A stretch of DNA of 64,000 nucleotides from Phyllobacterium myrsinacearum (lineage in GTDB: Bacteria > Pseudomonadota > Alphaproteobacteria > Rhizobiales > Rhizobiaceae): contig NZ_PVBT01000008.1 of NCBI RefSeq assembly GCF_002980555.1, forward strand, positions 186,001 through 250,000. The letters are read 5' to 3'. The translations under genes were made by a program, and so were the position numbers. The stretch's first letter is position 1. Each line of letters opens with the position of its first letter. The notes under the pieces are model-generated. The model was not told the DNA's origin, made no database searches, and saw nothing but the letters and a program-made list of their open reading frames with translations. Positions 18,772-35,789 of the stretch are shown piece after piece.

Positions 18772-18892
18772 GCCGGTGCTTTGCCTTGTGGACAAAGGTC
18801 AGGGGAACGCGGCCAATGCACCATCGCGACAAGGCGGGAGAGGACATCGCATCGCTCCCGGCACACCCCGTCCGGTTCGAATTACAGATGTG

Positions 18893-19072
18893 ATGGCAGG
18901 TCTCCTGGCTCGCGGGTCTCAGCTTCGCCTTGCCTTCCCGGCCTTTCGGTCAGTGGCATGTCAGGCATCGCTCGCCGCTTACAGTTGCGGGGGCAGCCAC
19001 GGTCTCGGTCCCTTTTGGGTACGCCTCACCGTGTTCCCTTTTCATCTCCCGCGTTGTCTTGCGGAAGAAACC
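18893..19072 (-). promoter_or_regulatory. Cobalamin (B12) riboswitch
   Basis: Read on the minus strand, the leader contains, in order, AAAAGGGAACACGGTG, the core GGCTGCCCCCGCAACTGTAAGCGG, ATGCCACTG, CCGGGAAGGC and the terminal B12 box GCCAGGAGACCTGCC (18895-18909). These are the conserved segments of the cobalamin riboswitch in the right order and spacing. It lies upstream of the DUF1636-ATPase-binding protein-permease operon, and adenosylcobalamin binding should shut expression down. The exact 5' end is estimated. Confidence 0.95.
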
Positions 19073-19246
19073 ATCGGCGCGGATGCTATGCGGCCCGCCG
19101 CGCAGTTGCAAGCATGTTTATGCGGCAATTTTTGAAGCTGCCAAAATTTTTGGCAAATGAAAGATTTCAATTGGCCGGTAACGCGTTAGAGTGCTGGGAG
19201 CATTTGTGGGAACACGGCTTTTTTTGAATCAGATTTTTGAGGCGAC

Positions 19247-22200
19247 ATGGCAATTCACGCAGCAGTCTATCATCTGACGCATTACAGATATGACCGGCCC
19301 ATCATGCTCGGGCCACAGATTATCCGGCTCCAGCCGGCGCCCCATTCCCGGACCAAAGTTCTCAGCCATTCCCTGAAAGTCAGTCCGGCCAATCACTTCG
19401 TCAACCTGCAGCAGGATCCCTACGGCAATTTCCTCGCCCGCTTTGTCTTTCCCGAGCCGGTGACGGAGCTGAAGATCGAGGTCGATCTCGTCGCTGACAT
19501 GACTGTCTACAATCCATTCGATTTCTTCGTTGAACCCGTCGCCGAGACATGGCCCTTCAGCTATCCCGAAGAGATCAGCGACGACCTGTCGATCTATATC
19601 AAACCGGAACCGGCCGGACCTCTGGTTTCAGCTTTCCTTGCAACCATCGATCACAGCCCGGCGAACACGGTGAATTTCATCGTCGATCTCAACGCGCGCA
19701 TCCAGCGTGAGATCGGCTATGTCATCCGCATGGAAACCGGTGTTCAGGAGCCGGACACCACCTTGAACCTGCGCGCGGGATCGTGCCGGGATTCAAGCTG
19801 GCTGCTGGTGCAGGTCCTGCGCAATCTCGGTTTTGCCGCGCGGTTCGTCTCCGGCTATCTCATCCAGCTGAAACCCGATCTCGTCGCCATCGATGGTCCC
19901 GCCGGCACCGACAAGGATTTCACCGATTTGCATGCCTGGTGCGAAGTCTACCTGCCGGGGGCAGGCTGGATTGGCCTCGACCCCACCTCCGGGCTTTTGA
20001 CCGGCGAGAGCCACGTGCCGCTTGCTGCCACCCCGCATTACCGCAATGCGGCACCGATTTCCGGCATGGCGGAATTTGCCAATGTGGAATTCGGTTTCGA
20101 TATGCGCGTGACGCGCGTGTCCGAGCACCCGCGCATCACCAGGCCGTTTTCCGACGAATCCTGGACTGCGCTCGATGCGCTCGGCGAACAGGTCGACGCG
20201 ATCCTGAACGAGAGGGATGTGCGCCTGACCATGGGCGGCGAGCCCACCTTCGTGTCCATCGATGATTTCGAATCGGGCGAATGGAACACCGATGCCGTTG
20301 GGCCGACCAAGCGGGAAAAAGCCGACAGGCTGATCCGGCGACTGCGCGAGCGTTTTGCGCCGGGCGGGTTTCTGCATTACGGGCAGGGCAAATGGTATCC
20401 GGGCGAGAGCCTGCCGCGCTGGACGTTCTCACTCTACTGGCGCAAGGACGGCAAGCCGATCTGGGTCAATCCCGACCTGATCGCTCCGGAAAACAGCAAG
20501 GCTGACGTCAAGCCGGAAGATGCCGGGAAACTCCTTGTCGCGTTGGCGCAGGAGCTGGGCGTTGAACAGGAGATGGTGGCGCCTGCCTATGAAGACCCGG
20601 CGGAATGGATCGTCAAGGAGGGCAATCTTCCCGATAATGTCGATCCGTCCAACTCGAAGCTGAAAGACCCGGAGGAACGCAGCCGCATCGCCCGGGTTTT
20701 CGAGCGGGGCCTGACCGAGCCAAGCGGTTTTGTCCTGCCGGTCCAGCGCTGGAACAGCCAGGCCTCCGGCCCGCGCTGGCGCAGCGAGAAATGGAAGACC
20801 CGGCGCGGCAAGCTGTTTCTGGTGCCGGGGGATTCGCCCGTCGGATACCGCCTGCCGCTCGGCGCCCTGCCGCATGTTCCGGCTTCGGAATATCCCTATA
20901 TCGTGCCGGTCGACCCGTCGGTGGATCGCGGCGTGCTGCCGGACCCGGCACCGCAGGTGCGCGAGAACATCCTTGCGGTTGCCTCTTTCACCGCTGATGA
21001 AGGCAACCAGCAGGAGCGGGTGGAGCAGGAACTGGGGGAAATCGGCGGGGCCGTGCGCACCGCCATATCGGTCGAGCCGCGGGACGGGCGCCTCAGCGTG
21101 TTCATGCCGCCGGTGGAGGCGCTCGAGGATTATCTGGAACTGGTTGCGGCGGCGGAAGCCGCGGCGCACAAGCTCGGACTGCCGGTCCACATCGAGGGCT
21201 ACAGCCCGCCGCAGGATCATCGTATCAATGTCATCCGCGTTGCACCCGATCCCGGTGTAATCGAGGTCAATATCCATCCGGCTGCCAACTGGCGCGACTG
21301 TGTAGACACAACGACGGCAATCTATGAGGAAGCCCGCCAGACACGCCTCGGTGCCGATAAATTCATGATCGACGGCCGCCATACGGGCACCGGCGGCGGC
21401 AACCACGTGGTGGTCGGCGGTGAAACACCGGCCAACAGCCCGTTCCTGCGCCGTCCTGATCTCTTGAAAAGTCTCGTCCTGCACTGGCAGCGCCATCCCT
21501 CGCTGTCTTACCTCTTCTCCGGCCTGTTCATCGGGCCGACGAGCCAGGCGCCGCGCATCGACGAGGCGCGGCACGACAGTCTCTACGAGCTGGAGATTGC
21601 GCTTTCGCAGGTGCCGCGCCCAGGCGAAGGCACGCCGCCCTTGCCCTGGCTGGTGGACAGGCTGTTCCGTAATCTGCTGGTGGATGTCACCGGCAACACG
21701 CACCGTTCGGAAATCTGCATCGACAAGCTGTTTTCGCCCGACGGTCCGACCGGCAGGCTCGGCCTGGTCGAGTTTCGCGGTTTCGAGATGCCGCCCAATG
21801 CGCGCATGAGCCTTGCCCAGCAATTGCTGATCCGCGCGCTGATTGCCCGGTTCTGGAACAATCCGATACAGGGCAGTTTCGTGCGCTGGGGCACGGCGCT
21901 GCATGACCGCTTCATGCTGCCGGCCTATGTCTGGCAGGATTTCCTCGATGTTCTCGCTGATTTGCGCGAGCACGGGTTTGATTTCCGGCCGGAATGGTTC
22001 GAGGCCCAGCTGGAGTTCCGCTTCCCCTTCTGCGGGGAAATCGAGAATGAGGGCGTGAAGCTGGAAATCCGGCAGGCGCTGGAGCCGTGGCATGTGATGG
22101 GCGAGCAGGGCGCCATCGGCGGCACGGTGCGCTTTGTCGATTCCTCGGTGGAACGGCTTCAGGTCAAGGTCGACGGTTTCAATCCTGCCCGCTACAGCGT

Positions 22201-22567
22201 GGCCTGCAACGGGCGCGAGGTGCCTCTGGCGATGACAGGCAGCCAGGGCACGGCGGTTGCAGGCGTGCGCTACAAGGCGTGGCAGCCACGCTCCGGCCTG
22301 CATCCGATGATCCCGGTCAACACGCCGCTGGTTTTCGACATTTACGACCAGTGGTCGCAGCGGGCGATCGGCGGTTGCGTCTATCATGTCGCACACCCCG
22401 GCGGGCGTAGCTATGATACGTTTCCGGTCAATTCGAACGAGGCGGAGGCGCGCCGGCTGGCGCGTTTCGAGCCGCGTGGCCATACGGCCGGCGGATATGA
22501 ATTGCGCAGGGAACAGCCATCGGGCGAATTTCCGATGACCCTTGATCTGAGAAGGCCGAGGCATTGA
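19247..22567 (+). CDS. Transglutaminase-DUF2126 fusion, predicted amidoligase component
   Basis: An 1106-residue cytoplasmic protein. The N-terminal part is a bacterial transglutaminase-like domain: [12 protein letters not shown] at the start, catalytic Cys near 179 in [12 protein letters not shown], His near 230 in [15 protein letters not shown], and Asp near 245 in GLDPTSG. The rest (about 300-1100, with [11 protein letters not shown] near 328 and [15 protein letters not shown] near 707) is DUF2126, which published comparative work assigns to a circularly permuted glutamine-synthetase-like ligase. GAGG precedes the ATG by five bases. With the next two genes it forms a conserved predicted peptide-ligation or tagging operon. 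No biochemical role is established. Confidence 0.9.
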
Positions 22568-22598
22568 GATTGTGGGATTGATGCAAAGAGAGATTTCA

Positions 22599-22614
22599 CA
22601 GCCCAGAGGGGGGT
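22599..22614. repeat. Right-end remnant of the palindromic mobile repeat
   Basis: The 16 bases CAGCCCAGAGGGGGGT match the right end of copy 1 exactly, but no left half is found. It is probably the scar of a decayed or partly deleted copy. It lies in the 57-base gap before the ATP-grasp gene, ending 10 bases before that gene's ATG. Confidence 0.6.
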
Positions 22615-22624
22615 ATTGCAGCCA

Positions 22625-25021
22625 ATGTCCCAGGTGAGCAAATCACGGCCACTCTCCGGTCTCCTAGCCGGCTACAGGCCGCTGCAGGGCGTGGCGGACG
22701 AGATGATCGATCCGAGCGGGGTTGTGCGGCCCGGCTGGGAAAGACTGCTGCGCTCGCTCGACACGCTCGGCCCCGAAAAACTCGCCACCCGCTTTGCCCG
22801 CGCCAACCAGTATCTGCACGATGCGGGCGTGTTTTACCGCGTCTATGACGAGACCGGCACGCAGGAGCGCGAATGGCCGCTCGCCCATGTTCCCCTTCTG
22901 ATCAACGAAGATGACTGGCGCGCCATCACCACGGGGCTGGCCCAGCGTGCCGATCTCCTTGAGGCTGTCGTTGCCGATGTCTATGGCGATAACCGGCTGG
23001 TGCGCGACGGCGTGCTGCCGCCTGATCTGATTGCCTCAAACCCGGAGTTCCTGCATCCCGTCGCCGGCATCAAGCCGGCCAGCGGGCATTTTCTGCATTT
23101 CTGCGCTTTCGAACTTGGACGCGCGCCCAATGGCCAGTGGTGGGTGCTGGGCGACCGCACGCAGGCGCCCTCGGGTGCCGGGTTTGCCCTGGAAAACCGC
23201 GTTGCCACCACCCGCGCCCTTTCGGATATTTCCGGCGCGATGAACGTTCATCGCCTTGCCGGTTTCTTCAAGGATTTCCGTGATTCCCTGCAGGGCCTGA
23301 TCCATGATCCCGCAGGGCGCGCGGCTATTCTCACGCCCGGGCCGAACAACGAAACCTATTTCGAACACGCCTATATCGCCCGTTATCTCGGCATCATGCT
23401 TCTGGAAGGCGACGACCTGACCGTGAGCAAGGGCCGGGTCATGGTGCGCACTGTGTCGGGTCTCAAACCCATCGACGTTCTGTGGCGGCGCATGGATGCC
23501 GCCTATATGGACCCGCTGGAGCTGAAACCGGATTCATGGATCGGCACGCCCGGCATGGTCGGCGCGCTGCGCCAGCGCTCCGTCTCGCTGGTCAATGCGC
23601 TGGGATCGGGCATTCTCGAAACCCGTGCGCTTTTGGCCTTCCTTCCCGCCATCTCGAAAGCCCTGCACGACCGTGATCTCGCCCTGCCCAGCATCGCCAC
23701 CTGGTGGTGCGGCCAGGAGAAGGAGCGCCAGCACGTCATGGACCGGCTCGACCAGATGATGGTCGGTCCGGCATTGTCGACGCGGCTGCCGTTCGAAGAC
23801 GTGCAGGCGACGGTTCTGGGGGCGGCGCTGGACGATGCGGCGCGCCAGGCCCTGTTACAGAGGCTCAAGATCGACGGGCGCGGACTGGTCGGGCAGGAGG
23901 CCGTCAAACTGTCGACAACGCCGGTCTATGTGGAGGGCAGGCTGGAGCCGCGTCCCTTTGTCCTGCGCGTCTTTGCGGCGCGCCATGGCGATGGCTGGAG
24001 TTTCATGCCGGGCGGTTTTGCCCGCGTCGGTTTCACGCTCGATACGGCGGCAATCGCCATGCAGCGCGGCGGGCAGGCGGCGGATGTATGGATCACCAGT
24101 TCGGCGCCCGTGCGCCGGGACACGCTGCTGCCGCGCGAGGACGACGCCTTCCGCCGCAATGTGCCGGGCACGCTGCCGAGCCGTGCGGCGGAAAATCTGA
24201 TGTGGATGGGGCGTTACATCGAGCGCGCCGAAGCCACGGCGCGCATCCTGCGGGCCTGCCATGCCCGCTATGCCGAGACGGCCAATGCGGAATTGCCGCT
24301 TCTGACGGAAATGCGCGATCATCTCAAACCCCTCGGGATTGATCTGGACGAGGCCATTCCGAACGGCCTCTTGCGCTCCATCGATGGCGCGATGCTCAGT
24401 GCCGGCCGCATCCGCGACCGTTTTTCGCCCGATGGCTGGCTGGCCCTGCGCGATCTGTCGAAGACGGTCCACCGGTTTCAGGGGGTGGTGTCGCAGGGCG
24501 ATGACGGCACCCGCGCCATGACCATCATCCTGCGCAAGCTTGCCGGGTTCTCCGGTCTGGTGCACGAGAATATGTATCGTTTCACCGGCTGGCGTTTTCT
24601 TGAAATCGGCCGCAGGCTGGAGCGCGGCATCCAGATGGCGCGCATCCTGGCGAACCTGTCGCGGCACGAGGCGCCGGAGGGCGCGCTGGAAATGCTGCTC
24701 GAGATCGGCGACAGCGTCATGACACACCGCAGGCAGTACAGCGTCTATTCCGGCCGCCTCAGCGTGCTCGACCTGCTTGCACTCGATCCGCTCAATCCGC
24801 GCTCGATCATTTTTCAGCTTGATGCGCTCAAAACCGAGTTCAGCCTCTTGCCGCAGCGCGAGGCAGGGGCACATATGCCCGCCTTTTCCAAGGATGTGCT
24901 GCGTCTGCACACACAGCTTGCCATCATGGAATCGAGCGAACTGACGGCAGATACGCTTGACGGTCTCGCCAATGAAATCGGCGCCTTGTCCGATACCATC
25001 TCCGATCTGTATTTTGCCTGA
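22625..25021 (+). CDS. Circularly permuted ATP-grasp / alpha-E fusion protein
   Basis: A 798-residue protein that joins two families usually encoded separately. Residues of about 60-480 are a circularly permuted ATP-grasp ligase (DUF404/DUF407: FYRVYDETGTQEREWPL, ENRVATTRALSDI, GPNNETYFEHAYIARYLGI, SVSLVNALGSGILE, RPFVLRVFAAR). From about 515 on is the helical alpha-E domain (DUF403) with its hallmark LMWMGRYIERAEATARILR. ATP-grasp enzymes of this kind are predicted to form amide bonds via acyl phosphates. The ATG at 22625 follows the repeat remnant, whose GAGGGGGG may act as a ribosome site. The next gene starts 11 bases after the stop. Confidence 0.9.
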   Translation: MSQVSKSRPLSGLLAGYRPLQGVADEMIDPSGVVRPGWERLLRSLDTLGPEKLATRFARANQYLHDAGVFYRVYDETGTQEREWPLAHVPLLINEDDWRAITTGLAQRADLLEAVVADVYGDNRLVRDGVLPPDLIASNPEFLHPVAGIKPASGHFLHFCAFELGRAPNGQWWVLGDRTQAPSGAGFALENRVATTRALSDISGAMNVHRLAGFFKDFRDSLQGLIHDPAGRAAILTPGPNNETYFEHAYIARYLGIMLLEGDDLTVSKGRVMVRTVSGLKPIDVLWRRMDAAYMDPLELKPDSWIGTPGMVGALRQRSVSLVNALGSGILETRALLAFLPAISKALHDRDLALPSIATWWCGQEKERQHVMDRLDQMMVGPALSTRLPFEDVQATVLGAALDDAARQALLQRLKIDGRGLVGQEAVKLSTTPVYVEGRLEPRPFVLRVFAARHGDGWSFMPGGFARVGFTLDTAAIAMQRGGQAADVWITSSAPVRRDTLLPREDDAFRRNVPGTLPSRAAENLMWMGRYIERAEATARILRACHARYAETANAELPLLTEMRDHLKPLGIDLDEAIPNGLLRSIDGAMLSAGRIRDRFSPDGWLALRDLSKTVHRFQGVVSQGDDGTRAMTIILRKLAGFSGLVHENMYRFTGWRFLEIGRRLERGIQMARILANLSRHEAPEGALEMLLEIGDSVMTHRRQYSVYSGRLSVLDLLALDPLNPRSIIFQLDALKTEFSLLPQREAGAHMPAFSKDVLRLHTQLAIMESSELTADTLDGLANEIGALSDTISDLYFA

Positions 25022-25032
25022 GGAAACGCGGA

Positions 25033-25911
25033 ATGCTTTACAATATCCGCCTCCATCTGCATTACGACTATGAACGTTCCGCAGCGGGCGGCCGCCATCA
25101 TATCCGGGTGATGCCACAGACGCTTCCGGGCATCCAGCGCGTGGTTGCCTCCAGCCTGTCCTTTGATCCTGCGGCGACGGAGCGCTCGGACTTTACCGAT
25201 TTCTTCGCCAATACGGTGACCTCCATCGTCTACCGCAACCCGCATGAAACCCTCGACGTGACGATGACGGCCCGCATCAACGTGGCGCGGCCGCAGACCA
25301 TGCTTGACGTTTCCCCTGATCTTTCCGGTCTGACTCGGGAAATACGCGGCGTCTGGTCAGTGGCGTCCGACGCGCCGCATCACTTTCTGACATCCAGCGC
25401 CCATGCGGGCATCGATGCTGACATGACAGCCTATGCCGCCGCGAGCCTTGGCAGGACGCGGACCGTCATGGAGGCAGCGGGTGATCTGTGCAACCGCATC
25501 CACGCGGATTTCACCTATGATTCCGACGCCACCAATGTGCGTACCACGGCGCGGGAGGCATTCGCGCTGCGGGCCGGGGTCTGTCAGGATTTCAGCCACA
25601 TCATGATTGCGGGCCTGCGCGGCATCGGTATTCCGGCAGGCTATGTCAGCGGTTTCCTGCGCACTATCCCGCCACCCGGCAAGGAGCGGCTGGAAGGTGC
25701 CGATGCCATGCATGCCTGGGTGCGCGTCTGGTGCGGGCGCGAGGCGGGCTGGCAGGAGTTCGATCCCACCAATGCGATGATGGCAGGCAATGACCATATC
25801 ACCGTCGGTTACGGCCGGGATTATGCCGATGTCTCGCCCATCGTCGGGGTGCTGAAAACCAGCGGTTCCCAGGAAGCGAAGCAATCGGTGGATGTGATCC
25901 CGCTGGAGTAA
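25033..25911 (+). CDS. Transglutaminase-like cysteine protease, second in the cluster
   Basis: A 292-residue protein with an N-terminal beta region (LYNIRLHLHYDYERSAAGGRHHIRVMPQ) and a transglutaminase-like core: catalytic Cys near 183 in RAGVCQDFSHIMIAGLRGIGIPAGYVSG, His near 225 in DAMHAWVRVW, Asp near 243 in FDPTN. In this family the enzyme may cleave or exchange peptide amide bonds. It closes the three-gene set and is clearly distinct from the transglutaminase domain of the 1106-residue protein. GAGGAAACGC precedes the start. Confidence 0.9.
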   Translation: MLYNIRLHLHYDYERSAAGGRHHIRVMPQTLPGIQRVVASSLSFDPAATERSDFTDFFANTVTSIVYRNPHETLDVTMTARINVARPQTMLDVSPDLSGLTREIRGVWSVASDAPHHFLTSSAHAGIDADMTAYAAASLGRTRTVMEAAGDLCNRIHADFTYDSDATNVRTTAREAFALRAGVCQDFSHIMIAGLRGIGIPAGYVSGFLRTIPPPGKERLEGADAMHAWVRVWCGREAGWQEFDPTNAMMAGNDHITVGYGRDYADVSPIVGVLKTSGSQEAKQSVDVIPLE

Positions 25912-26048
25912 ACGGATTGACAGCGCTTTTGTCCTTCGCGTCACCATTATTGGAATAGTTTTTCTTGGTTTCCGGCAAACGGGAGAATATGGTCTGCTTC
26001 AAGTGCCATTTGCGCCGGTGAATGGGATGAAATTTCGAAGTGCGATCC

Positions 26049-27170
26049 ATGCTCCCCATTCCACCGCTGATGCTGACCACAGGTCCGGTTCCCGCCTATC
26101 CGCAAGTGCTTGCCGCGCTCGGAAAGCCTGTTCTTTATGACTATCATCCCGCCTTCCAGGCCTTCTATGCCGAGGTGATCGAAAAGCTGCGGCTGGCGCT
26201 GCGGCAGGACACGGCGCCTGTTATCATGCAGGGGGAGGCCATTCTCGGTATCGAAGCAGCCGCTGCCGCGCTGATTGCCCGTGACGATGTGGTTCTGAAC
26301 CTTGTCTCCGGTGTCTATGGCAAGGGATTTGCCGGCTGGGCCGCGCGCTATGGCAAGGAGGTCGTCGAACTTGCCGTGCCCTATGATGATATCATCGACC
26401 CGCAGGCGGTGCGTGCGGCGCTGCGCCAGCGCCCGGATATCAAAATTGTCTCGCTTTGCCATCACGACACGCCGTCCGGCACGCTCAATCCGCTGCGGGA
26501 GATTGGCGCCGCCGTTGCCGAACACGGCGCCTATCTCATCGTCGACGCGGTGTCGTCCTTCGGCGGACTGGATGCCCATCCGCAGGAGGCGCATGCCGAC
26601 ATCTTCATCACCTCGCCATCGAAATGCCTGGGCAGCACGCCGGGTCTCAGCCTCATCGGGGTGAGCGATCGGGCCTGGGCCAAGATCGAGGCCAATCCGG
26701 ACGCGCCACGCGGCTCGTTCCTCAGCCTTTTGGGCTGGAAAGGCGCTTCGGAGCCCGACAAGCCTTTTCCGGTGACGCCGTCCATTGCGGAAATCTATGC
26801 GCTCGACGCGGCACTTGACCTCTATGCCGCCGAGGGCGCCGAAAACGTCTGGGCCCGCCATGCGGAAACGGCTGAAATCACCCGCAACGGCCTGCTGGAT
26901 CTCGGTCTGGAACTCTGGCCGAAAAAGCTGGAATACTGCGCGCCGACAGCCACCGCTTTCAAGCTGCCCGATGGTTTCAGCGATACCGCTCTGCGCGACC
27001 GGTTGCGCGACGAGCACGGCATCCTCCTGTCGCTCGGCCGTGCCGATACATCGGGCAAGCTGCTGCGCGTCGGGCATATGGGCGCGTCCGCCAAACCCGA
27101 TTTTGCCCGCGCCACCATTGCCGCTCTCAGCCAGATTCTGTCCCGCCCCCTCGGCCAAACCTATGCATAA
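26049..27170 (+). CDS. Class V aminotransferase resembling pyridoxamine-pyruvate transaminase
   Basis: A 373-residue PLP-fold-type-I enzyme. It resembles the Mesorhizobium loti pyridoxamine-pyruvate transaminase along its whole length: LTTGPVPAYPQVL, LYDYHPAFQ, VVLNLVSGVYGKGF, VSLCHHDTPSGTLNPL, AYLIVDAVSSFGGLDAHP and SPSKCLGSTPG with the reactive Lys near 191. That enzyme turns pyridoxamine and pyruvate into pyridoxal and alanine in vitamin B6 degradation. None of the other B6-degradation genes is seen here, so an alanine-glyoxylate-type activity is possible. A GTG at 26040 is an alternative start. The transporter binding-protein gene starts 13 bases later. Confidence 0.8.
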   Translation: MLPIPPLMLTTGPVPAYPQVLAALGKPVLYDYHPAFQAFYAEVIEKLRLALRQDTAPVIMQGEAILGIEAAAAALIARDDVVLNLVSGVYGKGFAGWAARYGKEVVELAVPYDDIIDPQAVRAALRQRPDIKIVSLCHHDTPSGTLNPLREIGAAVAEHGAYLIVDAVSSFGGLDAHPQEAHADIFITSPSKCLGSTPGLSLIGVSDRAWAKIEANPDAPRGSFLSLLGWKGASEPDKPFPVTPSIAEIYALDAALDLYAAEGAENVWARHAETAEITRNGLLDLGLELWPKKLEYCAPTATAFKLPDGFSDTALRDRLRDEHGILLSLGRADTSGKLLRVGHMGASAKPDFARATIAALSQILSRPLGQTYA

Positions 27171-27183
27171 GAGGATCGCAAGC

Positions 27184-28800
27184 ATGTCCCGTATCCTGTT
27201 GAACCGCCGCGCCTTTCTCAATCTGACCGCCAGCGCCGCCGCGCTGACCGCCATGCCGGGTCTTGGCTGGGCGCAGGGGGAAACGCCTGTCAAAGGCGGG
27301 CGTCTGATCGTCGCCGGGGACAGCGAACCGGCCAATCTCAATCCTGCCATCGTTGCCTCCAATGGCGTGTTCTTTGTCGCCAGCAAAATTGTCGAGCCGC
27401 TGGCCGAACAGTCCTATGACGGCAAGGACGGCCTGTCGCCGCGCCTGGCCACCGCATGGGAAGGCTCGGCCGATGGCCTGACCGCAACGTTCAAACTGCG
27501 CGAAGGCGTGACATGGCACGACGGCAAGCCGTTCACTTCGGCCGATGTCGCCTTCTCCGCGCTGGAAGTGTGGAAGAAGCTGCAGAATCTTGGCCGCGTT
27601 GTCTTCAAGAATCTCGAGAGCGTCGAAACGCCGGATGACCACACGGCCGTCTTCAAATTCTCGCAGCCGACGCCGTTCCAGCTCATCCGCAATGCGCTGC
27701 CGGTGGTGACCTCCGTCGTACCAAAACACCTCTATGAAGGCACCGATATCGCCAAGAATCCGGCCAATGAAGCACTGGTTGGCACCGGCCCGTTCAAATT
27801 CGGCGAACACAAGCCGGGCGAATATTACCTGCTGAAGCGCAATGAGGCGTACTGGCAGAAGGATCAGCCGCTGCTGGATGAAATCGTCTACCAGATCCTG
27901 CCCGACCGTTCCTCCGCCGGCAATGCGCTGGAGGCCGAACAGATCCAGCTTGCCGCCTTTTCCGCCGTGCCGCTTGCCGATCTCGCCCGCATCTCCAAGG
28001 TGCCGGGCCTGAAGGTCTACGCCAATGGCTATGAAGGGCTGACCTACCAGCTCATCGTCGAGATCAACCACCGCCGCAAGGAACTGGCTGATCCGCGGGT
28101 GCGTCAGGCGCTTGCCCATGCGATCGACCGGGATTTTGTCGTCAAGACGATCTTCCTCGGCTATGCCAAGCCGTCGACGGGACCGGTTCCCGCCTATGAC
28201 AAGACGTTCTACGAGCCAGATGTGGCTGCCAATGCCTTCGATCCGGCCAAGGCGGAAGCGCTGCTAGACGCCGCAGGCTACAAGCGAGGCGCCGACGGCA
28301 ATCGTTTCACGCTGAAACTCCTGCCCGCACCATTCTTCAATGAAACCAAGCAGTTCGGCGACTATCTGCGCCAGGCGCTGGCCAAGGTGGGCATCGATGC
28401 GCAGGTGGTCAGCAACGATACACCCGCCCATCTGAAAGCGGTCTATACGGACCATGATTTCGATATCACCGTGGCTACGCCGGTCTACCGTTCCGATCCG
28501 GCGATCTCCACGACGATCCTGTTCGAAAGCGGGCTGCCCGCCGGTGTGCCGTTCTCCAACCAGTACGGCTATGCCAATGCGGATGTGGACAGGCTGATCA
28601 AGGATGCCGCTTCCACCGTGGATAGCGACAAGCGCGCTGGCCTCTACAAGCAGTTGCAGAAGGTGGTGGCTGAGGATCTGCCGCTGATCAATGTGGCCGA
28701 GTTCTCGTTCATCACGGTTGCGCGCGATACGGTGCAGAATGTGTCGGACAATCCACGCTGGGCGGTGTCCAACTGGGCGAATATCTGGCTGAAGGGGTAG
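27184..28800 (+). CDS. Peptide/nickel-type ABC transporter binding protein (SBP_bac_5)
   Basis: A 538-residue periplasmic binding protein. The N-terminus NRRAFLNLTASAAALTAMPGLGWA carries a twin-arginine motif and signal cleavage region, so Tat export is likely. Family motifs include LSPRLATAWEGSADGLTATFKLREGVTWHDGKPFTSADV near 85-125 and VRQALAHAIDRDFVVKTIF near 305. Such proteins bind oligopeptides, opines, glutathione, nickel chelates or sugars. The gene follows the transaminase by 13 bases and precedes two permeases and two ATPases, so the ligand may be related to the transaminase substrate. Confidence 0.92.
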   Translation: MSRILLNRRAFLNLTASAAALTAMPGLGWAQGETPVKGGRLIVAGDSEPANLNPAIVASNGVFFVASKIVEPLAEQSYDGKDGLSPRLATAWEGSADGLTATFKLREGVTWHDGKPFTSADVAFSALEVWKKLQNLGRVVFKNLESVETPDDHTAVFKFSQPTPFQLIRNALPVVTSVVPKHLYEGTDIAKNPANEALVGTGPFKFGEHKPGEYYLLKRNEAYWQKDQPLLDEIVYQILPDRSSAGNALEAEQIQLAAFSAVPLADLARISKVPGLKVYANGYEGLTYQLIVEINHRRKELADPRVRQALAHAIDRDFVVKTIFLGYAKPSTGPVPAYDKTFYEPDVAANAFDPAKAEALLDAAGYKRGADGNRFTLKLLPAPFFNETKQFGDYLRQALAKVGIDAQVVSNDTPAHLKAVYTDHDFDITVATPVYRSDPAISTTILFESGLPAGVPFSNQYGYANADVDRLIKDAASTVDSDKRAGLYKQLQKVVAEDLPLINVAEFSFITVARDTVQNVSDNPRWAVSNWANIWLKG

Positions 28801-28920: not shown

Positions 28921-29901
28921 TTGCCGCCTCTTGCATTCTTTTTCCTGAAACGCCTTTTGGGTGCGATTCCGGTTCTGGCCGTTGTGCTCGTCGGCAGCTT
29001 TCTGCTGCTGGAGGCGGCATCCGGTGACGCGGTGGATTCCTACGTGGCCCGTTCCGGCGGCATGGATGCCGGCCAACTGGCGCAGTTGCGTCAGGCATGG
29101 GGCCTCGATCAGGGGCCATCCCATCGTTTCATCGCCTATGTCTCGGCACTCGGCCATGGCGATCTCGGCTGGTCGACGGCGTTTCAGCGCCCTGTATTGT
29201 CGGTGATCGCCGAACGGTTGCCGGTGACGCTGCTGCTGATGGGCGTTGCCACGGCACTTGCCTTCTTCCTCGGTTCGCTGCTCGGCGTCATCGCCGGTGC
29301 GAAACCCGGTTCCCTGCGCGACCGGTTCCTGTCCATCGGTTCGCTGGCGCTGTATGCCGTTCCCGGCTTCTGGCTGGGGCTGGTGCTGATTGTGATTTTT
29401 GCTGTCGATCTGCGCTGGCTGCCGGTCGGCGGCATCGAGACTATCGCATCCGGCAAGAGCGGATGGGCACGCATGACGGATATCGCCGCGCATCTGGTGC
29501 TGCCGGTCGCCTCGCTCGCCATGGTTTACCTCGCGCTTTATCTGCGCCTGATGCGCGACCGCATGAGCGAGGTCTGGCGCGATCCCTTCGTCACCGGCCT
29601 GAAGGCGCGCGGCCTCAGCCGTGGCCGCATCGTCTGGCGGCACGTGGCGCGCAATGCGGTCCTGCCTGTCATCACCATGCTCGGCCTGCAGGCGGCGGTC
29701 ATGCTGGGTGGCAGTGTGGTGGTCGAAAGCGTTTTTGCCATTCCAGGGTTCGGGCGGCTGGCGGCGGAGGCTGTCTCGCGGCGTGACACGCCGCTGCTGC
29801 TGGGTGTCATCCTGTGCAGTGCCGTCACGGTGATTATCGCCAACCTGCTGGTCGATCTGGCCTATGGCAGGCTCGATCCGCGCGTGAGGGTCGGCCGATG
29901 A
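28921..29901 (+). CDS. Peptide-type ABC transporter permease, DppB-like
   Basis: A 326-residue inner-membrane permease. It opens with FLKRLLGAIPVLAVVLVGSFLLLEAASGD, as in DppB/OppB. The EAA loop is recognisable in MRDRMSEVWRDPFVTGLKARGLSRGRIVWRHVARNAVLPVI near 217-257. The start is TTG at 28921, supported by GGAG six bases upstream. A 120-base gap separates it from the binding-protein gene. It overlaps the second permease by ATGA. Confidence 0.92.
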   Translation: MPPLAFFFLKRLLGAIPVLAVVLVGSFLLLEAASGDAVDSYVARSGGMDAGQLAQLRQAWGLDQGPSHRFIAYVSALGHGDLGWSTAFQRPVLSVIAERLPVTLLLMGVATALAFFLGSLLGVIAGAKPGSLRDRFLSIGSLALYAVPGFWLGLVLIVIFAVDLRWLPVGGIETIASGKSGWARMTDIAAHLVLPVASLAMVYLALYLRLMRDRMSEVWRDPFVTGLKARGLSRGRIVWRHVARNAVLPVITMLGLQAAVMLGGSVVVESVFAIPGFGRLAAEAVSRRDTPLLLGVILCSAVTVIIANLLVDLAYGRLDPRVRVGR

Positions 29902-35712: not shown

Positions 35713-35789
35713 TGGTCGGAGTGAGAGGATTCGAACCTCCGACCCCGTCGTCCCGAACGACGTGCGCTACCAGGCTGCGCTACACTCCG
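35713..35789 (-). tRNA. tRNA-Pro, anticodon CGG
   Basis: Read on the minus strand, the 77-base sequence folds as a cloverleaf. The acceptor stem is CGGAGTG paired with CACTCCG. The D arm contains GCGCAGCCTGGTAGCGC. The anticodon stem is CGTCG/CGACG around the loop TTCGGGA (anticodon CGG, reading CCG). The T arm is GGAGG-TTCGAAT-CCTCT, and CCA is encoded at the 3' end. Confidence 0.95.

What the first reader, a model, noticed from the sequence alone, without database searches (positions are those of the whole stretch)
19247..25911. Transglutaminase-DUF2126, ATP-grasp/alpha-E fusion and second transglutaminase: a predicted peptide-ligase system
Seen: three consecutive genes with 57- and 11-base gaps, two of them multidomain, with the catalytic triads of both transglutaminase domains present. 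Known: comparative genomics (Iyer, Aravind and colleagues, 2009) predicted that circularly permuted ATP-grasp, DUF2126 (permuted glutamine-synthetase-like ligase), alpha-E and transglutaminase domains, with an NTN-hydrolase peptidase, form a peptide-tagging or peptide-synthesis system. The activity has not been settled. Inference: the ATP-grasp/alpha-E fusion makes the two domains an obligate unit, two different transglutaminases suggest attachment and removal steps, and the NTN-hydrolase partner is not in this window.
Basis: partly seen in the sequence, partly recalled or inferred. Interest (0 to 1): 0.7.

Follow-up and report, generated by a model that had tools for sequence, protein, structure and literature searches.

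The report
Dead ATP-grasp in a peptide-ligase cassette
These three genes belong to a widespread, still untested bacterial amide-bond-making system, but the ATP-using part that was expected to do the chemistry here appears to have lost its active site, while an intact copy of it sits elsewhere in the same genome.

Summary
19247-25911 encodes transglutaminase-DUF2126, a circularly permuted ATP-grasp/alpha-E fusion and a second transglutaminase; both Cys-His-Asp triads are intact. The family assignment (Iyer/Aravind predicted system) holds, but two inferences change.

(1) The fused ATP-grasp looks like a conserved pseudoenzyme. At nine positions kept by 46 of 46 distinct standalone relatives (E-x-N-x-R motif, lysines, Gly-rich loop), 109 distinct fused copies keep 0 to 3 (one copy in a second count keeps 4). 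The window's keeps none. Its fold and the alpha-E ER motifs remain.

(2) An intact standalone ATP-grasp, not the NTN hydrolase Anbu, tracks the cassette. In a 200-genome phylum draw, 63 of 63 DUF2126 genomes carry one with 9 of 9 sites; in 28 of 63 no Anbu was found. In the window's genome it sits in a separate Anbu operon.

Published data place relatives in the nitrogen-limitation response. I propose an accessory module: DUF2126 is its ligase and the dead ATP-grasp/alpha-E a binding or regulatory partner of the intact one. The substrate is unknown.

The parts
19247..22567 (+). TG-DUF2126: N-terminal transglutaminase-like Cys enzyme (about 19265-19984; C180, H229, D245) fused to DUF2126, predicted permuted glutamine-synthetase-like ligase (about 20078-22552)
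   Evidence: Pfam; triad; DUF2126 strongly conserved incl. E673-x-N675, N719-H720, E842-x-R844; AF2 pLDDT 72, TG fold 3isr, weak GS-like hits 4hpp/9qur
22697..24097 (+). Circularly permuted ATP-grasp domain of the fusion (residues 28-494): predicted fold kept, catalytic-site residues lost (conserved pseudoenzyme)
23150..23164 (+). Lost metal motif: E-x-N-x-R of standalone relatives reads G179-D-R181-T-Q183 here
23765..23821 (+). Region of the lost lysine and glycine-rich loop (K364, S369-G-G-Y-G373 of the intact paralogue)
24173..25015 (+). Alpha-E domain (residues 520-800), both ER motifs present (E536-R537, E669-R670)
   Evidence: Pfam
25033..25911 (+). Second transglutaminase-like protein, triad C184/H227/D244
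   Evidence: Pfam

Best explanation
The three genes are an accessory module of a hub formed by an intact standalone circularly permuted ATP-grasp ligase with alpha-E and a transglutaminase, which in this genome lies in the Anbu operon on another contig. Shown by sequence: the cassette's own ATP-grasp has lost residues that the intact relatives keep at the metal and ATP site, and is retained, fused to an alpha-E that keeps its motifs; each DUF2126 genome examined has an intact standalone paralogue; Anbu is optional. Inferred: DUF2126 is the ATP-using amide ligase of the cassette; the pseudo-ATP-grasp/alpha-E binds the substrate or pairs with the intact ATP-grasp (for example as a heterodimer) to recruit or regulate it; the transglutaminase Cys enzymes cleave or transfer the amide. 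From published expression of relatives, the system is proposed to act under nitrogen limitation.
For: Nine positions kept in 46 of 46 distinct standalone domains, 0-3 of 9 kept in 109 distinct fused domains; core four (E156, N158, K317, K364): 97 fused keep none, 12 keep one. In place of the lost residues the fused copies share a new set: R181 97/109, Q183 91/109, G189 108/109, E335 108/109, so the pocket looks re-specialised, not merely decayed. One branch, SH-aLRT support 100, separates 51 fused from 46 standalone domains in a quick tree. AF2 of the fusion: pLDDT 88.8; best PDB match 3n6x, TM 0.86 by target. 63 of 63 DUF2126 genomes have an intact paralogue (motif read in each) against 48 of 137 genomes without DUF2126 (counted by score, motifs not read); Fisher 9e-22, not corrected for kinship. 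It lies within 12 kb of DUF2126 in 36 of 63. Three genomes with a fusion but no DUF2126 (G194, G197, G024) also have a high-scoring standalone copy. Enterobacter roggenkampii plasmid: compact row of intact ATP-grasp, alpha-E, TG-DUF2126, fused pseudo-ATP-grasp, TG, with no Anbu in the 30 kb read. B. cenocepacia H111: DUF404/407, DUF403, TG and large TG genes I35_5080-83 are lower by log2 8.2, 9.4, 9.4 and 6.0 in an ntrC mutant; another B. cenocepacia record shows ATP-grasp, alpha-E, TG, TG-DUF2126, fusion, TG in a row.
Against: I saw no biochemistry for DUF2126, alpha-E or the fusion in the papers and passages I could read. Nucleotide binding by other residues cannot be excluded from sequence. 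That E-x-N are metal ligands is recalled glutathione-synthetase knowledge; a profile alignment to E. coli Gss failed. The one interaction test seen (Yersinia Anbu-operon proteins, Anbu as bait) found no specific complex; it did not test ATP-grasp pairs. Five of 63 DUF2126 genomes show no fused match: G036, G064 and G076 seem to lack it; in G049 and G097 DUF2126 is at a contig end. One 74%-complete genome, G149, has a fusion but no intact paralogue was found. One read fusion keeps 4 of 9 sites and one extra standalone copy in G069 keeps 7 of 9. No sigma-54 site stands upstream of the window cassette or directly upstream of the own Anbu operon, so nitrogen control here is not shown. The TG-DUF2126 model is only moderate (pLDDT 72) and its GS-like matches are weak. 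Co-occurrence counts are not corrected for kinship.
Confidence: 0.62

Rival explanations
1. The cassette is a self-sufficient peptide-tagging system in which both the fused ATP-grasp and DUF2126 are active ligases.
For: Domains and gene order are those of the predicted system; the predicted fold of the ATP-grasp is kept; its alpha-E keeps the ER motifs.
Against: No more than 3 of 9 site residues in 109 fused domains, while 46 of 46 standalone ones keep all nine; an intact paralogue in 63 of 63 genomes.
Confidence: 0.12
2. The fused pseudo-ATP-grasp/alpha-E is an antagonist that competes with the intact ATP-grasp/alpha-E and limits it, rather than helping it.
For: Same predicted fold, re-specialised pocket, co-occurrence with the intact paralogue.
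Against: It stands between TG-DUF2126 and a TG in 71 of 80 named loci, which suggests a working part; nothing here tests antagonism.
Confidence: 0.15
3. The cassette and the Anbu-type operon are functionally separate and co-occur only because both are favoured in the same kinds of genomes.
For: In the window's genome they are on different contigs; the Fisher tests ignore kinship.
Against: Intact ATP-grasp within 12 kb of DUF2126 in 36 of 63 genomes, one row of genes on an Enterobacter plasmid, joint NtrC-dependent expression in B. cenocepacia.
Confidence: 0.13

Closest known systems
Iyer et al. 2009 predicted peptide-tagging system (CP ATP-grasp, permuted GS-like DUF2126, alpha-E, NTN hydrolase, transglutaminase)
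   Same: Domain set and neighbourhood, as recalled and as cited in passages of other papers; the original is not held and was not read
   Different: The fused ATP-grasp of this cassette is degenerate; NTN hydrolase is optional; an intact standalone ATP-grasp is the constant partner
Anbu operon (CP ATP-grasp, alpha-E, transglutaminase, Anbu); ATP-grasp of Yersinia bercovieri releases phosphate from ATP (PMC6376114, passages)
   Same: Homologous ATP-grasp, alpha-E and transglutaminase; one complete copy in this genome
   Different: No Anbu at the window locus; ATP-grasp and alpha-E fused, ATP-grasp site degenerate; DUF2126 added
3n6x, putative glutathionylspermidine synthase of Methylobacillus flagellatus; eukaryotic glutathione synthetase fold
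   Same: Same fold, TM 0.86 by target for 3n6x
   Different: 3n6x keeps the E-x-N-x-R, lysine and Gly-loop motifs; the window domain does not

Membership tests
Catalytically competent CP ATP-grasp ligase | E-x-N-x-R motif, lysines, Gly-rich loop (role recalled; invariance tested) | tested here: not met
   Window domain keeps 0 of 9 positions; fused class 0-3 of 9, standalone class 9 of 9 in 46 of 46
Catalytically competent CP ATP-grasp ligase | CP ATP-grasp (glutathione-synthetase-like) fold | tested here: met
   AF2 pLDDT 88.8, 3n6x TM 0.86 by target
Catalytically competent CP ATP-grasp ligase | ATP binding and acyl-phosphate chemistry | not testable with these tools
   needs biochemistry
Iyer/Aravind predicted peptide-ligase system | DUF2126, CP ATP-grasp, alpha-E and transglutaminase encoded together | tested here: met
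   order kept in 71 of 80 named loci
Iyer/Aravind predicted peptide-ligase system | NTN-hydrolase (Anbu) partner | tested here: inconclusive
   None at the locus; one in the genome within its own operon; found in 35 of 63 DUF2126 genomes
Iyer/Aravind predicted peptide-ligase system | ATP-dependent peptide or amide ligation | not testable with these tools
   needs biochemistry
Anbu operon | Four genes ATP-grasp, alpha-E, transglutaminase, Anbu | tested here: not met
   Window locus lacks Anbu; the genome's separate copy at C1 meets it
Transglutaminase-like Cys enzyme | Cys-His-Asp triad | tested here: met
   both window proteins
Glutamine-synthetase-like ligase (DUF2126) | GS-like fold | tested here: inconclusive
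   weak Foldseek matches to GS homologues 4hpp (prob 0.90, E 0.014) and 9qur (prob 0.72) on a moderate model

The most novel reading that the evidence does not exclude
The DUF2126 systems are built on a pseudoenzyme: an ancient duplicate of the ligase, fused to alpha-E, lost catalysis and became a substrate-binding or allosteric subunit of a two-ATP-grasp (one live, one dead) assembly that, with the DUF2126 ligase and transglutaminases, makes and breaks an unknown amide under nitrogen limitation, with the proteasome-like Anbu as an optional add-on.
Probability: 0.4. Interest if true: 0.8.

Novelty: new variant of a known kind. Interest (0 to 1): 0.58.

Why it matters
DUF2126 genes are common (63 of 200 genomes of the phylum draw), yet I found no settled chemistry for them. 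A direct ATP assay on the fusion would probably fail because its site is gone. The work should instead use the intact paralogue together with the cassette, under nitrogen limitation, and need not wait for a proteasome-like peptidase. A pseudo-ATP-grasp kept across one phylum, and also on an Acidobacteriota plasmid, would be a clear case of a dead ligase put to new use.

Tried and rejected
NTN hydrolase as the missing obligate partner: rejected. Anbu was found in 35 of 63 DUF2126 genomes, and among the 111 genomes with a high-scoring standalone ATP-grasp Anbu is independent of DUF2126 (35/63 against 32/48, p 0.25). Over all 200 genomes Anbu is commoner with DUF2126 than without (35/63 against 34/137, p 5e-5); I read that as both following the ATP-grasp.

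Conserved neighbours as a clue to the substrate: the commonest neighbour family occurs in 21 of 120 loci, and two of the window's downstream transporter genes each in 5. Sigma-54 control in the window: no site upstream of the cassette. Residue mapping to E. coli glutathionylspermidine synthetase by profile alignment failed, and a PDB profile search gave only 3n6x as a credible match. The Enterobacter module was sought in E. coli genomes in 'near' mode: no match. Papers opened that did not help: an ATP-grasp gene in Bradyrhizobium DOA9 and one in Paraburkholderia phymatum that I could not identify as this family, a Caulobacter NtrC paper whose transglutaminase is HvyA, and two papers on a different, membrane-bound inactive transglutaminase.

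Rows dropped before counting: ATP-grasp stretches matched over fewer than about 400 residues, and exact duplicates (110 fused to 109, 52 standalone to 46). A first per-genome count gave 40 of 63 because newly fetched loci were not yet assigned to genomes; with the assignment it is 63 of 63. In one search fusions were read in 41 of 63 genomes; 22 gave none in the stretches fetched (some lack one, others were not fetched), and one read fusion kept 4 of 9. Of four further standalone copies, three keep 9 of 9 and one in G069 keeps 7. Phyla other than the window's could be sampled only through plasmid records (Granulicella with the cassette; Deinococcus and Tsukamurella with standalone ATP-grasp, alpha-E and TG).
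Full report
What is there. The window holds three consecutive + strand genes at 19247-22567, 22616 (or ATG 22625)-25021 and 25033-25911. Pfam gives transglutaminase N-terminal region + transglutaminase core + DUF2126; CP_ATPgrasp_2 + Alpha-E; and transglutaminase N-terminal region + core. The window is part of a 5.4 Mb genome (G000). Its closest named relatives in the scan are a Rhizobiales bacterium (91% identity in the first protein) and Phyllobacterium pellucidum (89%); from these I infer an alphaproteobacterium and take 'phylum' below to be Pseudomonadota. The scan kept the 80 best of 593 loci. In them the order TGD-fusion-TG stands in 71 (one of these with an Anbu operon beside it); 8 show the first gene alone and 1 shows two genes.

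The fused ATP-grasp looks like a pseudoenzyme. The only sequence relative of the fusion in the PDB at E 1 or better is 3n6x. Against it, the window domain reads VLGDRTQAPSG where 3n6x reads VLEDNLRTPSG, and the lysine plus glycine-rich loop is replaced. At nine positions (E156, N158, R160, K317, K364, G370, G371, G373, K463 of the own genome's intact copy) all 46 standalone domains have the residue. The fused ones keep E156 in 1, N158 in 0, R160 in 4, K317 in 2, K364 in 9, the three glycines in 13, 15 and 23, and K463 in 21, of 109. In that set no fused domain keeps more than 3 of 9, and the window's keeps none; in a second, per-genome reading one fusion keeps 4. In glutathione-synthetase-like enzymes E-x-N are metal ligands and the lysines and Gly-rich loop hold ATP (recalled, from no call). 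The change is not free drift: the fused class shares its own residues at several of the same places (Arg 97, Gln 91, Gly 108 and Glu 108 of 109), while the ATP loop is variable. A quick maximum-likelihood tree puts 51 fused and 46 standalone domains on the two sides of one branch with SH-aLRT support 100. AlphaFold2 gives a good model of the window fusion (pLDDT 88.8). Foldseek matches it first to 3n6x (TM 0.86 by target); the matches at E 0.001 or better are titled as glutathione synthetases and their relatives, glutathionylspermidine or trypanothione synthetases, YjfC and a ligase Cp1B, so none points to a known fold for alpha-E (which prints no query ranges). Alpha-E keeps its two ER motifs in fused and solo forms alike, and the transglutaminase triads are intact.

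The constant partner is an intact ATP-grasp. I searched the same draw of 200 genomes of the phylum with DUF2126, CP_ATPgrasp_2 and an alignment of six Anbu proteins. DUF2126 is in 63. I read a standalone ATP-grasp in each: 63 of 63 keep 9 of 9 sites. Of the 137 genomes without DUF2126, 48 have a high-scoring standalone copy (by score, motifs not read); Fisher p is 9e-22, uncorrected for kinship. The intact gene lies within 12 kb of DUF2126 in 36 of 63. Anbu is found in 35 of 63 and not in 28, of which 22 are at least 90% complete and 6 are not (completeness as listed). Among genomes with a standalone ATP-grasp, Anbu and DUF2126 are independent (35/63 and 32/48, p 0.25). Three genomes (G194, G197, G024) have fusion and transglutaminase without DUF2126, and they too have a high-scoring standalone copy; a 74%-complete genome, G149, has a fusion with none found. 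Five of the 63 show no fused match: G036, G064 and G076 seem to lack it, and in G049 and G097 DUF2126 is at a contig end. In the window's genome the intact copy is in a complete operon of ATP-grasp, alpha-E, transglutaminase and Anbu on another contig. A second, stronger proteasome-family match on contig 3 is probably HslV (my inference).

Compact natural versions. An IncFII plasmid of Enterobacter roggenkampii carries intact ATP-grasp, alpha-E, TG-DUF2126, fused pseudo-ATP-grasp and transglutaminase in a row, with no Anbu in the 30 kb read. A Burkholderia cenocepacia record has ATP-grasp, alpha-E, TG, TG-DUF2126, fusion, TG in a row. A Granulicella (Acidobacteriota) plasmid has the three-gene cassette, and its fused domain is among the 109; that plasmid itself holds no standalone copy, and its chromosome was not searched.

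Expression of relatives. Passages of PMC5491218 report that in B. cenocepacia H111 under nitrogen limitation the genes annotated DUF404/407, DUF403, transglutaminase and large transglutaminase protein (I35_5080-83) are lower by log2 8.2, 9.4, 9.4 and 6.0 in an ntrC mutant. That the large protein is TG-DUF2126 is my inference from gene order. Passages of PMC8050072 give log2 4.44 for the P. putida Anbu gene and 3.99 for its ATP-grasp on nitrate against ammonium. Passages of PMC7801951 give, in the first value column, 14.66, 11.04 and 12.61 for PP_2688, PP_2687 and PP_2686 but 1.12 for Anbu PP_2685; a passage of PMC3325844 instead gives 11.1 for PP2685, 6.6 for PP2686 and 7.1 for PP2687, so Anbu is not consistently set apart. 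Passages of PMC3597751 report that DUF403, DUF404 and DUF407 associate with urea-metabolism domains in marine metagenomes. The P. putida genes belong to an Anbu operon, not to a DUF2126 cassette. The window cassette shows no sigma-54 site upstream, so nitrogen control here is not shown.

Mechanism. Shown by sequence: a degenerate ATP-grasp site, an alpha-E with its motifs, a very conserved DUF2126, two intact transglutaminase triads, and an intact paralogue in each DUF2126 genome read. Inferred: DUF2126 is the cassette's ligase; the pseudo-ATP-grasp/alpha-E binds a substrate or pairs with the intact ATP-grasp; the transglutaminase enzymes cleave or transfer the amide. The substrate is unknown; a nitrogen-related amine or peptide is a guess.

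Literature. A search for DUF2126 gave 0 papers in the held library. Searches (capped listings) gave no paper, among the titles listed and the passages I opened, that describes the fused ATP-grasp as inactive. The original 2009 paper is not held and may already have noted this, so the claim of novelty is limited to what I could search.

Noticed in passing
window 18878-19090, - strand: Cobalamin riboswitch (130 bits) just upstream of the divergent ABC, periplasmic-binding and FecCD genes, which therefore look like a B12 uptake operon; it lies between that operon and the cassette.
   Followed up: yes
window 26040-27170, 26785-28800 and 28921-29901, + strand: Pyridoxamine-pyruvate transaminase (NF046070, 626 bits over a 600 cut-off) followed by a family-5 solute-binding protein and a permease; the latter two families occur in only 5 of 120 loci near the cassette.
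   Followed up: partly
L188 8153-17350: An Enterobacter roggenkampii IncFII plasmid (human blood isolate) carries a five-gene version of the system in a stretch with several transposase genes; no similar DNA in the E. coli collection in 'near' mode.
   Followed up: partly
L192 8887-12263; L195, L196, L197: Fused pseudo-ATP-grasp/alpha-E plus transglutaminase without DUF2126 beside it.
   Followed up: partly
G094:C88:6038-6775: Anbu in a genome with no CP_ATPgrasp_2 match; with G149 (fused copy only) one of 2 Anbu genomes of 69 without a standalone ATP-grasp.
   Followed up: no
L230 1224-2672 (G069): A third, standalone ATP-grasp in G069 that keeps seven of nine site residues but has an altered Gly loop.
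   Followed up: partly
DUF2126 loci L039-L077 and L108-L187: In 14 of 120 loci each, neighbours that look to me (read by eye, no family search) like glycogen phosphorylase and glycogen branching enzyme; in 17 what looks like proline dehydrogenase PutA. Probably lineage-specific.
   Followed up: no
Sinorhizobium meliloti SM11, literature: A passage of PMC8407117 links a regulatory region next to a COG2308 (CP ATP-grasp) gene to competitiveness for nodules in a genome-wide association study.
   Followed up: no
window 35716-35789, - strand: A tRNA gene (Rfam, 62 bits).
   Followed up: no
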